64,000 nt of DNA, taken from positions 2,602,001-2,666,000 of the forward strand of contig CP168152.1 of assembly GCA_041545745.1 (NCBI GenBank), read 5' to 3'. This stretch comes from Stenotrophomonas indicatrix. GTDB lineage: Bacteria; Pseudomonadota; Gammaproteobacteria; Xanthomonadales; Xanthomonadaceae. The notes under the pieces were generated by a model. That model was not told where the DNA came from, did no database searches, and saw only the letters and a list, made by a program, of their open reading frames with translations. Within the stretch, counting starts at the first letter, position 1, and each line of letters begins with the position of its first letter. Made by a program: the position numbers and the translations under genes. This document shows, in pieces, positions 10,028 to 28,178 of this stretch.

Positions 10028-10673
10028 ATCCCCTCCTCCCATCGGCGTGCTGGTGGTTGATGACCACCCCCTGCTGCGCGATGGACTGGCGGCACTGCTG
10101 AGCACGCACGCAGACCTCCGCCTGCTCGGCGAAGCCGCCGATGGCGAAGAGGCGCTTGCCCGTTACCAGCAACTGCAACCGGATGTGGTGCTGATGGACC
10201 TGCAGATGCCGCGCATGGACGGCGTTGAAGCGATCGTGCGGATCCGCGCGCTTGATCCACGCGCCCGCATCATCGTGCTGACGACCTACCGTGGCGATGT
10301 ACGTGCGGTGCGTGCACTGCAGGCCGGGGCCAGCGCGTATCTGTTGAAGGACACGCTCCGCCACGAACTGGTGGACACCATCCGCACCGTGGCCAGCGGC
10401 CGCCGCGCCCCAATACCGGCAGAGGTGGCGGCCAGCATCGCCGCGCATGTCGTCGAAGACCGGCTGTCGCCACGCGAAACCGAAGTGCTGCGCCACGTGG
10501 CCGGCGGCCTGTCGAACAAGCGCATCGGCGAACGCATGCAGATTTCCGAGCAGACGGTGAAGGCGCACATGAAAAGCCTGATGGACAAGCTGGGCGTCGG
10601 CGACCGCACCCACGCGGTAACCCAGGCCCTGCGCCGCGGAATCATCAGCCTGGATGACACCGGCCAAGAGTGA
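10020..10673 (+). CDS. NarL/FixJ-family response regulator
   Basis: A 217-residue response regulator. The receiver domain (residues 1-120) has the acidic pair VVDDH at 13-15, the phosphorylated Asp60 in VVLMDLQMP, a Thr in VLTTY and the Lys in LLKDT. The C-terminal LuxR-type helix-turn-helix (about 150-210) contains LSPRETEVLRHVAGG and ISEQTVKAHMKSLMDKLGV. It is the partner of the overlapping kinase. The gene is followed directly by the composite palindromic element at 10674-11240, whose first hairpin begins 12 bases after the stop codon. Confidence 0.95.
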   Translation: MTESPPPIGVLVVDDHPLLRDGLAALLSTHADLRLLGEAADGEEALARYQQLQPDVVLMDLQMPRMDGVEAIVRIRALDPRARIIVLTTYRGDVRAVRALQAGASAYLLKDTLRHELVDTIRTVASGRRAPIPAEVAASIAAHVVEDRLSPRETEVLRHVAGGLSNKRIGERMQISEQTVKAHMKSLMDKLGVGDRTHAVTQALRRGIISLDDTGQE

Positions 10674-11240
10674 AGGGGGTTCGACCGGGCTGCGCCCGGC
10701 ACCCGCAGAGGCCGAAGCAACAGCAACAGCCGAAGCAACAGCAACAGCAAAAGCTGGCCTCCTGTGGGATGGCGGGGCGGGTCCGGTTGCGGGGGACGCC
10801 GTGAATCCATCCATGGAGGCTCGGTCGCGCCATCCATGGCGCTCACGCCCCCGCAACCGGACCCACCCCGCCTTCGACAATTTCCCGCTGCTGTTGGGCT
10901 GCTGTTGGTAGCTGTCGACCTTGGTCGACACGATCCACGCCATGCGTAGATGCTCTTCGATCACTTATCGAAATATTCGATTTCGATGGAGATTCATCCA
11001 CGCATGAGGTGGATCCATCAGACATCGGAAATCTGTCGAAGGTGGGGCGGTGTCGGATTGCGGGGCATCCGCGCCATGGATGGCGCGGCTGAGCCTACAA
11101 GGACGTACTTGCGGCGTCCCCGCAATCCGACACCGCCCCGCCCCCCACGGAATACCCGCTGTTGCTGTTGCTGTTGCTGTTGAGGTTGCCGGCCAGCGGC
11201 CGGCACTACAGCAGGTGCAGGGCGCAGCCCTGCCGAACAC
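10674..11240. repeat. Composite nested palindromic element, copy A
   Basis: This non-coding element fills the gap between the convergent response regulator and MFS genes. From the outside in, on both sides, it has four layers. First come terminal hairpins CCGGGC-TGC-GCCCGG (10685-10699) and GCAGGGC-GCA-GCCCTGC (11217-11233). Next come CAACAG-type runs (10712-10754) answered by CTGTTG runs (11159-11184). Then come long hairpins with 25-base arms (10771-10795 with 10848-10872, and 11041-11065 with 11118-11142), each with a 52-base loop that folds again. Last are GTAG-type palindromes around the centre TCGAAATATTCGA at 10968-10980. A standard GTTGCC..CTAC palindrome sits at 11185-11209. The right half is a diverged reverse complement of the left. 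A second copy is at 27545-28178. Confidence 0.85.
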
Positions 11241-27544: not shown

Positions 27545-28178
27545 AAGGTTGGCAGGGCTGCGCCCTGCACCCGCCGAAGCGACGTCAACGTCAACGTCAA
27601 AAGCGGGCTACCCGTGGGATGGCGAGGTGGGTCCGGTTGCGGGGGACGCCGTAAACCCGTCCTTGGGGCTTGGCCGCGGCATCCATGCCGCGGACACCCC
27701 CGCAACCGGACCCACCCCGCCTTCGACAGATCTCCGCGATTTGTCGGAATGGCATGGCCTGCTCTTGGTGGGTGTCGACCTTGGTCGAGACGTAGATCCA
27801 CGCCACGCGTGGATGCTTTTCGTTCAATTGTCGAAATATTCGATTTCGATGGAGATTCATCCACGCATGGCGTGGATCTACCAGACACCGAAAAACTGTC
27901 GAAGGCGGGGCGGTGTCGGATTGCGGGGTGTCCGCGGCATGGGCCCGAGGCATGCCTCGGGCGGGTTGGGCAGGACGCCCAACCCCGGTCTTGCCGTGTG
28001 TGCAGGACTGCGCACACGAGCAAGCCGCGGCCAAGCCTACAGGGACGTACTTGCGGCGTCCCCGCAATCCGACACCGCCCCGCCCTCCCACGGGATGCGG
28101 CTGTTGCTTCGGCTGTTGCTGTTGAAGTTGCCGGCCAGCGGCCGGCACTCCCAATGGGTGCCGGGCGCCGCCCGGCCG
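27545..28178. repeat. Composite nested palindromic element, copy B
   Basis: This is the second copy of the element at 10674-11240, again exactly between two convergent genes. It has the same order: terminal hairpin GCAGGGC-TGC-GCCCTGC (27552-27568), an ACGTCA/CAACGT-type run, a long hairpin beginning at GGTGGGTCCGG (27626) and closed at 27695-27720, and GTAG-type palindromes around TCGAAATATTCGA (27831-27843). A second long hairpin (from 27901, closed near 28060-28086), CTGTTG runs, a GTTGCC palindrome at 28137 and a terminal hairpin CCGGGC-GCC-GCCCGG (28161-28175) complete it. The loop of the second long hairpin is longer than in copy A and carries three extra stem-loops at about 27946-28019. 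Stem changes relative to copy A are compensatory. Confidence 0.85.

What the first reader, a model, noticed from the sequence alone, without database searches (positions are those of the whole stretch)
10674..11240. Composite nested palindrome filling a convergent gap (copy A)
The element runs from 12 bases after one stop codon to 12 bases before the other and is mirrored at every level about TCGAAATATTCGA: terminal hairpins, CAACAG/CTGTTG runs, two long hairpins with 25-base arms and folded 52-base loops, and GTAG palindromes. The right half is a diverged reverse complement of the left. Together with copy B it suggests an undescribed repeat family selected for structure. It might be a transcription barrier between convergent genes, a structured RNA, or a mobile palindromic element.
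Basis: partly seen in the sequence, partly recalled or inferred. Interest (0 to 1): 0.78.

Follow-up and report, generated by a model that had tools for sequence, protein, structure and literature searches.

The report
Paired mobile hairpins with RsmA-like loops
The palindrome is one of about a hundred intergenic repeat sites in this bacterium's genome, mostly at gene ends; each carries one or two copies of a hairpin related to a known Yersinia repeat, and the hairpin tips look like binding sites for the global RNA-binding regulator RsmA/CsrA.

Summary
The 567-bp element is a highly structured, dispersed repeat. This Stenotrophomonas-like genome holds at least 146 copies of its hairpin unit at 95 intergenic sites (capped). 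The mirror symmetry is two facing copies of one ~114-nt unit plus known GTAG (SMAG) repeats; all 48 true two-unit sites face each other. Sites are enriched between convergent genes (36/95 against 43/375 other gaps) and rare in divergent gaps. Type-1 outer hairpins start a median 9 nt after stop codons.

Stems covary while two inner hairpins are conserved. The unit is not wholly undescribed: its core is homologous to the Yersinia palindrome YPAL/RU-2 and occurs in 67 of 369 Gammaproteobacteria genomes.

New: on one strand both inner loops read CANGGANG with free N, the ANGGAN hexaloop bound by CsrA/RsmA, 20 nt apart, and stem mismatches are mostly G.U on that strand. I infer a mobile gene-end palindrome carrying dual RsmA-binding modules. 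Against: no transcription or binding data, no consistent orientation, no promoter, and Rfam's Yersinia sRNA Ysr224 is modelled on the opposite strand.

The parts
10674..11240 (.). Copy A, composite element between two convergent genes
10685..10699 (.). Left outer (type-1) hairpin CCGGGCTGCGCCCGG, starting 12 nt after the stop codon
10715..10754 (+). Left hexamer tract (CAACAG and variants)
10767..10880 (-). Left YPAL-type hairpin unit; the GGA strand is the - strand (model R1 reads the + strand)
   Evidence: R1 129.2 bits
10808..10815 (-). Loop A of the left unit, CATGGATG
   Evidence: sequence; motif counts
10831..10838 (-). Loop B of the left unit, CATGGATG
   Evidence: sequence; motif counts
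10908..10931 (+). GTAG palindrome GTAGCTGTCGACCTTGGTCGACAC (SMAG-like)
   Evidence: sequence; SMAG described in PMC2613905
10932..10952 (+). GATCCACGCCATGCGTAGATG palindrome (SMAG-like)
   Evidence: sequence
10968..10980 (.). Centre TCGAAATATTCGA
   Evidence: sequence
11033..11146 (+). Right YPAL-type hairpin unit; the GGA strand is the + strand (model R1 reads the - strand)
   Evidence: R1 126.2 bits
11075..11082 (+). Loop B of the right unit, CATGGATG
   Evidence: sequence
11098..11105 (+). Loop A of the right unit, CAAGGACG
   Evidence: sequence
11158..11183 (+). Right hexamer tract (CTGTTG)
11188..11209 (-). SMAG repeat GTAGTGCCGGCCGCTGGCCGGC
   Evidence: sequence; consensus in PMC2613905
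11218..11232 (.). Right outer hairpin CAGGGCGCAGCCCTG
27617..27729 (-). Copy B, left unit (GGA strand -)
   Evidence: R1 118.7 bits
27896..28088 (+). Copy B, right unit (GGA strand +), 193 nt because further palindromes are nested in loop B
   Evidence: R1 93.8 bits; loop list

Best explanation
The element is a mobile, gene-end-associated composite palindrome: two facing copies of a YPAL/RU-2-type hairpin unit, with SMAG (REP) repeats between them, close behind the stop codons of a convergent gene pair. SHOWN: dispersed family; facing pairs; position at gene 3' ends; filled, partial and near-empty alleles at one orthologous site; covarying stems; homology of the core to YPAL; two CANGGANG loops at fixed spacing on one strand. 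INFERRED: the unit acts as RNA of that strand and offers two high-affinity sites to one RsmA/CsrA dimer. A transcript reading in from either flanking gene passes one unit in the inert sense and the other in the binding sense, so the facing arrangement would give each read-through transcript one RsmA-binding module that titrates RsmA or tunes the stability of those 3' ends.
For: Family and facing pairs. Gene-end position. Alleles of 38 to 693 bp at one orthologous gap in near relatives. Covariation. YPAL homology. Loops: ANGGA in 146/150 loop A and 148/150 loop B; two CANGGANG in 183 of 193 non-redundant units, 143 from this genome and 50 from others, and in 31 of 34 class-wide matches; N takes all four letters while flanking pairs covary; GGA-to-GGA spacing 20 nt in 138/140, 38/43 and 31/31. 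Published target: ANGGAX hexaloop directly on a stem, dimer bridging of sites 10-63 nt apart (passages). Stem mismatches on the R1 strand 71 A.C to 13 G.U here and 20 to 5 in 51 units of other genomes, i.e. G.U wobbles on the GGA strand. CsrA in 29 of 29 core-positive genomes of the phylum sample against 191 of 369 others.
Against: No transcription or binding data. Single units show no consistent orientation: in co-directional gaps the GGA strand is sense in 14 and antisense in 8 here, but 7 and 14 in named class loci. Rfam's Ysr224, an expressed Yersinia sRNA, matches the strand without GGA loops. No promoter or T-tailed terminator in copy A, and centres of 47 pairs score below shuffled. The SELEX study as reviewed found few very stable hairpins, whereas loop B sits on 6-8 pairs inside a ~25-bp stem. 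Mismatch skew excludes one near-fixed pair (on the R1 strand G.U in 118 of 146) by my choice, and in the class-wide set it is not seen (10 G.U, 14 A.C on the GGA strand). Unpaired G>A also exceeds C>T (18/600, 13/1040), so mutation bias may contribute. In the class sample the CsrA association is weak (62/67 against 250/302, p 0.06).
Confidence: 0.5

Rival explanations
1. Selfish palindromic element: the conserved inner loops are the recognition site of an unidentified transposase acting on single-stranded DNA of one strand, and the likeness to RsmA sites is coincidental. Insertion is tolerated mainly at gene 3' ends, which explains position and lack of orientation bias.
For: Dispersed copies in both orientations; filled and near-empty alleles; PMC2229807 (passages) reports YPAL target duplications and targets at dyad symmetries; strand skew would equally fit a single-stranded DNA hairpin.
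Against: No transposase partner: R1 has 0 hits in 30 loci around Y1_Tnp (PF01797) genes from many genomes, and units persist with unrelated stems between genera. The free N and the 20-nt spacing match the CsrA target in detail.
Confidence: 0.27
2. Structural 3'-end element: the long stems protect or terminate mRNAs of both flanking genes (two-way terminator, RNase III site or barrier); the inner loops matter little.
For: Very stable hairpins on both strands; position a median 9 nt behind stop codons; palindromes are reported as mRNA stability determinants in Yersinia (PMC2267715, passages).
Against: The loops, not the stems, are conserved in sequence. No T-tailed terminator in copy A.
Confidence: 0.18
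3. Pair of outward sRNA genes: a bidirectional promoter in the centre drives two RsmA-sponge sRNAs ending in the outer hairpins.
For: The GGA strand of each unit reads outward from the centre.
Against: No promoter-like site in copy A; 47 pair centres score below shuffled for a sigma-70 pattern. Other promoter types were not scanned.
Confidence: 0.05

Closest known systems
YPAL / RU-2 (Yersinia palindromic sequence, ~168 bp)
   Same: Homologous core with the same two inner hairpins, loops CAAGGATG and CATGGATG, inside a long stem (RU-2 sequence in PMC2759123; fold; core model 64.7 bits in Yersinia similis). Intergenic, targets at dyad symmetry, presence/absence (PMC2229807, passages).
   Different: Here usually paired face to face, with SMAG repeats, hexamer tracts and outer hairpins, 550 bp in all; stems GC-rich and unrelated by eye; target duplications not shown.
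Ysr224 (Rfam RF02770, Yersinia sRNA)
   Same: Best Rfam match of the hairpin, 35.8 bits, with near identity over both inner hairpins.
   Different: Far below the gathering score of 70; modelled on the strand without GGA loops; several unrelated microRNA families score nearly as high because of the long stem.
SMAG / GTAG REP repeats of S. maltophilia
   Same: The GTAG palindromes inside copy A fit the published consensus (PMC2613905, section read).
   Different: SMAGs are ~24-bp palindromes; they are a component, not the long hairpin. Hairpin units are not linked to Y1 transposase genes.
CsrB/RsmZ-type sponge RNAs and RsmU
   Same: Repeated ANGGAN hexaloops closed by C-G; RsmU also derives from an mRNA 3' UTR (PMC7694677, passages).
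   Different: Dispersed repeats with long stems, two GGA loops per unit; expression and RsmA binding unknown.

Membership tests
YPAL/RU-2-type element | homologous core with two inner hairpins in a long stem | tested here: met
YPAL/RU-2-type element | intergenic, close behind stop codons | tested here: met
   (the stop-codon rule for YPAL itself is recalled; the original paper is not held)
YPAL/RU-2-type element | presence/absence polymorphism between related genomes | tested here: met
   one locus, 12 other genomes measured
YPAL/RU-2-type element | target site duplications of 3-26 bp | not tested
   needs many filled/empty pairs
Rfam Ysr224 (RF02770) | score at or above the gathering threshold | tested here: not met
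   35.8 bits against 70; 0 matches at gathering
SMAG/REP with RAYT | GTAG-tagged short palindrome | tested here: met
   for the inner repeats only
SMAG/REP with RAYT | long hairpin unit beside a Y1 (RAYT-type) transposase gene | tested here: not met
   0 R1 hits in 30 Y1_Tnp loci, 94,864 bases
CsrA/RsmA-sequestering RNA | several ANGGAN loops in hairpins | tested here: met
CsrA/RsmA-sequestering RNA | own promoter and terminator | tested here: not met
   sigma-70 and T-tail scans only
CsrA/RsmA-sequestering RNA | expression and binding to RsmA | not testable with these tools
   needs RNA-seq and EMSA/CLIP

The most novel reading that the evidence does not exclude
A Gammaproteobacteria-wide family of mobile palindromes is a vehicle for dual-site RsmA/CsrA-binding RNA. 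In Stenotrophomonas it has multiplied to about 150 modules (about 300 ANGGAN loops), forming a distributed RsmA sponge embedded in mRNA 3' ends that could stand in for CsrB/RsmZ-type RNAs, no homologue of which was found in Xanthomonas.
Probability: 0.35. Interest if true: 0.87.

Novelty: new variant of a known kind. Interest (0 to 1): 0.66.

Why it matters
What YPAL/RU-2-type repeats do, and what titrates RsmA in Xanthomonadaceae, are open. PMC3937308 (2014, passages) says rsmB homologues had not been identified in Xanthomonas and suggests an undiscovered mechanism; PMC7694677 (2020, passages) adds one sponge, RsmU, described as limited to Xanthomonas. If these loops bind RsmA, one abundant mobile repeat links both questions, and a gel shift with a single hairpin tests it. 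It would also show how a repeat can spread binding sites for a global regulator along a genome.

Tried and rejected
Rejected: chance palindrome. Coding origin: open frames overlap the element in several frames, but stem covariation and the loop pattern have no codon logic (inference, not tested). Y1/RAYT-mobilised REP for the long unit. Outward sigma-70 promoters. Rfam family at threshold.

Led nowhere: the orientation test on named class loci used a crude longest-ORF caller; of 83 units tallied, 30 fell inside an ORF, 13 at edges, 40 were usable. The original YPAL paper is not held; what I say of YPAL rests on passages in PMC2229807, PMC2759123, PMC2847712 and PMC2267715. Prior-art searches: (YPAL with CsrA: 0 papers; CsrA with repetitive extragenic palindromic and GGA: 0). 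The library is open-access only; the main SMAG paper and most subscription papers are not in it.

Rows dropped before counts: 4 identical rows (150 to 146); 21 overlapping echoes in A3 (72 to 51); units longer than 130 nt; one near-fixed pair; one of 48 pairs with a short centre.

Full report
WHAT IS THERE. Copy A fills the gap between the stop codons at 10671-10673 (+) and 11245 (-). Its ends are 28-nt inverted repeats, 86% complementary, each with its own small hairpin; inside are hexamer tracts, two long hairpins and GTAG repeats. RNA folding is far beyond dinucleotide shuffles on both strands, z -18.0 and -23.4, 0 of 100 shuffles as good. No Rfam family reaches its gathering score in the window.

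A FAMILY. BLAST against its own genome gives 117 matches with 40 of 500 candidates scored; 20 other places match over at least 490 of 567 positions at 72-83% identity. A covariance model (R1) of the hairpin unit from 34 copies finds 146 units among 150 scored candidates. They fall into 95 sites: 48 facing pairs (+-), 24 single +, 21 single -, one ++-, and one apparent -+ that is a single palindrome read on both strands. A rescan of 88 fetched stretches plus the window gave 153 matches, so the number is a lower bound, and some 'single' sites prove to be pairs with an enlarged partner. The mirror symmetry is therefore two facing copies of one oriented unit. In the genus, 28 of 37 genomes (own included) have R1 hits and 9 have none.

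WHERE IT SITS. None of the 95 sites overlaps a called gene by more than 40 nt: 36 lie in convergent, 51 in co-directional and 8 in divergent gaps. Other gaps in the same stretches are 43 convergent, 265 co-directional and 67 divergent. The convergent excess has p 1.5e-8; the divergent deficit against gaps of at least 100 bp (54 of 137) has p 6.6e-8. A type-1 outer hairpin was recognised beside 89 of 146 units, a second type beside 31, neither within 110 nt of 26. The type-1 hairpin begins a median 9 nt (quartiles 8-12) after the stop codon on 59 stop-facing sides, against 67.5 nt on 30 start-facing sides. The gene caller is a simple codon-usage script of mine.

MOBILITY. At the orthologous gap, measured in 12 other genomes of the genus, the interval between the two stops is 567, 574, 693, 523, 356, 291 and 291 bp where whole, partial or nested elements are present, and 38 bp in G026, where little more than CCGGCAGGGCGCGCCGCCCTGCCGG remains. 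Four more distant genomes show 3-35 bp, by extrapolated alignment of gene ends. Further palindromes are inserted in unit loops in some copies. This is one locus; whether G026 shows the state before insertion or after deletion is not proven.

STRUCTURE. In 34 units 24 of 39 pairs show two-sided change. In 146 distinct rows 33 of 39 do, and 98.2% of cells pair against 77.3% in shuffles and 42-50% when partners are slid; that alignment was fitted to the model. The stem changes almost freely; the two inner hairpins do not. Between genera the stems are unrelated in sequence yet paired.

KINSHIP. The sub-threshold Rfam hit Ysr224 (35.8 bits, gathering 70) led to YPAL/RU-2. The RU-2 sequence printed in PMC2759123 (passages) contains the same core and folds with the same two inner hairpins. 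A 68-nt core model (R2) from 49 sequences hits 67 of 369 Gammaproteobacteria genomes and 29 of 398 genomes of the phylum, all 29 in this class. It scores 64.7 bits in Yersinia similis and 67.1 in Pectobacterium. In the family sample 71 of 247 genomes, 16 of 54 genera, carry R1 hits. Two core matches lie in contigs filed as alphaproteobacterial MAGs (L342, L370); whether these are mis-binned was not checked.

THE LOOPS. Read on the strand complementary to R1, the inner loops are CA-N-GGA-N-G. ANGGA is present in 146 of 150 loop A and 148 of 150 loop B in this genome. Two CANGGANG occur in 183 of 193 non-redundant units, 143 from this genome and 50 from others, and in 31 of 34 class-wide core matches in 29 of the 30 loci. 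N takes all four letters while the flanking pairs covary. The distance between the two GGA is 20 nt in 138/140, 38/43 and 31/31 units with both motifs. PMC4005645 and PMC7652899 (passages) give as high-affinity CsrA/RsmE target an ANGGAX hexaloop directly on a stem, SELEX consensus RUACARGGAUGU, and dimer bridging of two sites 10-63 nt apart with an optimum above 18 nt. The match is close in sequence, in structure and in which positions are free.

WHICH STRAND. Uncompensated stem mismatches on the R1 strand are 71 A.C against 13 G.U in 146 rows, over 23 and 11 positions, with A.C ahead in the context classes that have counts, bar one tie. By distinct position, type and context they are 46 against 12; by position and type 27 against 12. 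In 51 units of other genomes they are 20 against 5. A.C on that strand is G.U on the GGA strand. These counts leave out one near-fixed pair next to loop A, which lies inside the ANGGAN hexaloop; with it the other-genome count is 21 A.C to 32 G.U. The class-wide set shows no such skew (10 G.U, 14 A.C on the GGA strand, that pair included). Unpaired G>A (18 of 600) also exceeds C>T (13 of 1040), so mutation bias may contribute. Rfam's Ysr224 is modelled on the other strand.

CO-OCCURRENCE WITH CsrA. In the phylum sample all 29 R2-positive genomes have CsrA against 191 of 369 others. In the class sample it is 62 of 67 against 250 of 302 (p 0.06), or 56 of 57 against 223 of 257 among good genomes (p 0.009). 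I matched the printed lists by hand. The exceptions are G310, G370, G401 and G642 (67-88% complete) and G496 (98%). Shared ancestry and genome size weaken this.

AGAINST. In co-directional gaps single units have the GGA strand sense in 14 and antisense in 8 here, and 7 and 14 in the named class loci: no consistent orientation. No sigma-70 promoter lies in the centres. No transcription or binding data were available. R2 contains the motif, so the class-wide search favours it; the free N and the spacing are the less biased parts.

CONCLUSION. Well supported: a dispersed, structure-selected, probably mobile composite palindrome made of two facing YPAL-type units at gene ends. Proposed, at about even odds: the unit is a dual-site RsmA/CsrA-binding RNA module. 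The searches listed found no paper that holds both YPAL and CsrA (open-access library only).

Noticed in passing
window 27896-28088; L181; L104 2738-2929; L072 3074-3263; L127 3080-3269: Further palindromes are nested in loop A or loop B of some units; the loop-B insert of copy B brings two more hairpins with AGGA in their loops.
   Followed up: partly
31 of 146 units in the own genome, e.g. L061 2801-2916 and L119 2801-2916: A second composite type has a different outer hairpin (CCAACGGCGCAGCCCCTCGTGG-like, at most 4 mismatches) and more varied stems.
   Followed up: no
centres of L012, L013, L017, L020, L023, L180, L181: GGGGTCAGATCCG...CGGATCTGACCCC palindromes fit the GGGGWSAS motif given for TIRYT-flanking repeats in PMC3733652.
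   Followed up: no
upstream flanks of units, e.g. own genome 3926588: Hexamer tracts (CAACAG, CAACGG, CAACGT and variants) differ in unit and number between copies, like a microsatellite.
   Followed up: no
L217 1238-1352, L220 1672-1787, L228 1665-1792: Weak R1 hits with long stems of another layout; all three carry CCATGG-type loops, and two have an ACAGGATGT loop.
   Followed up: no
G004, G007, G016, G018, G024, G025, G028, G030, G034: Nine of 37 genomes of the genus have no R1 hit at E 1e-6, so the repeat is absent or diverged in whole lineages.
   Followed up: no
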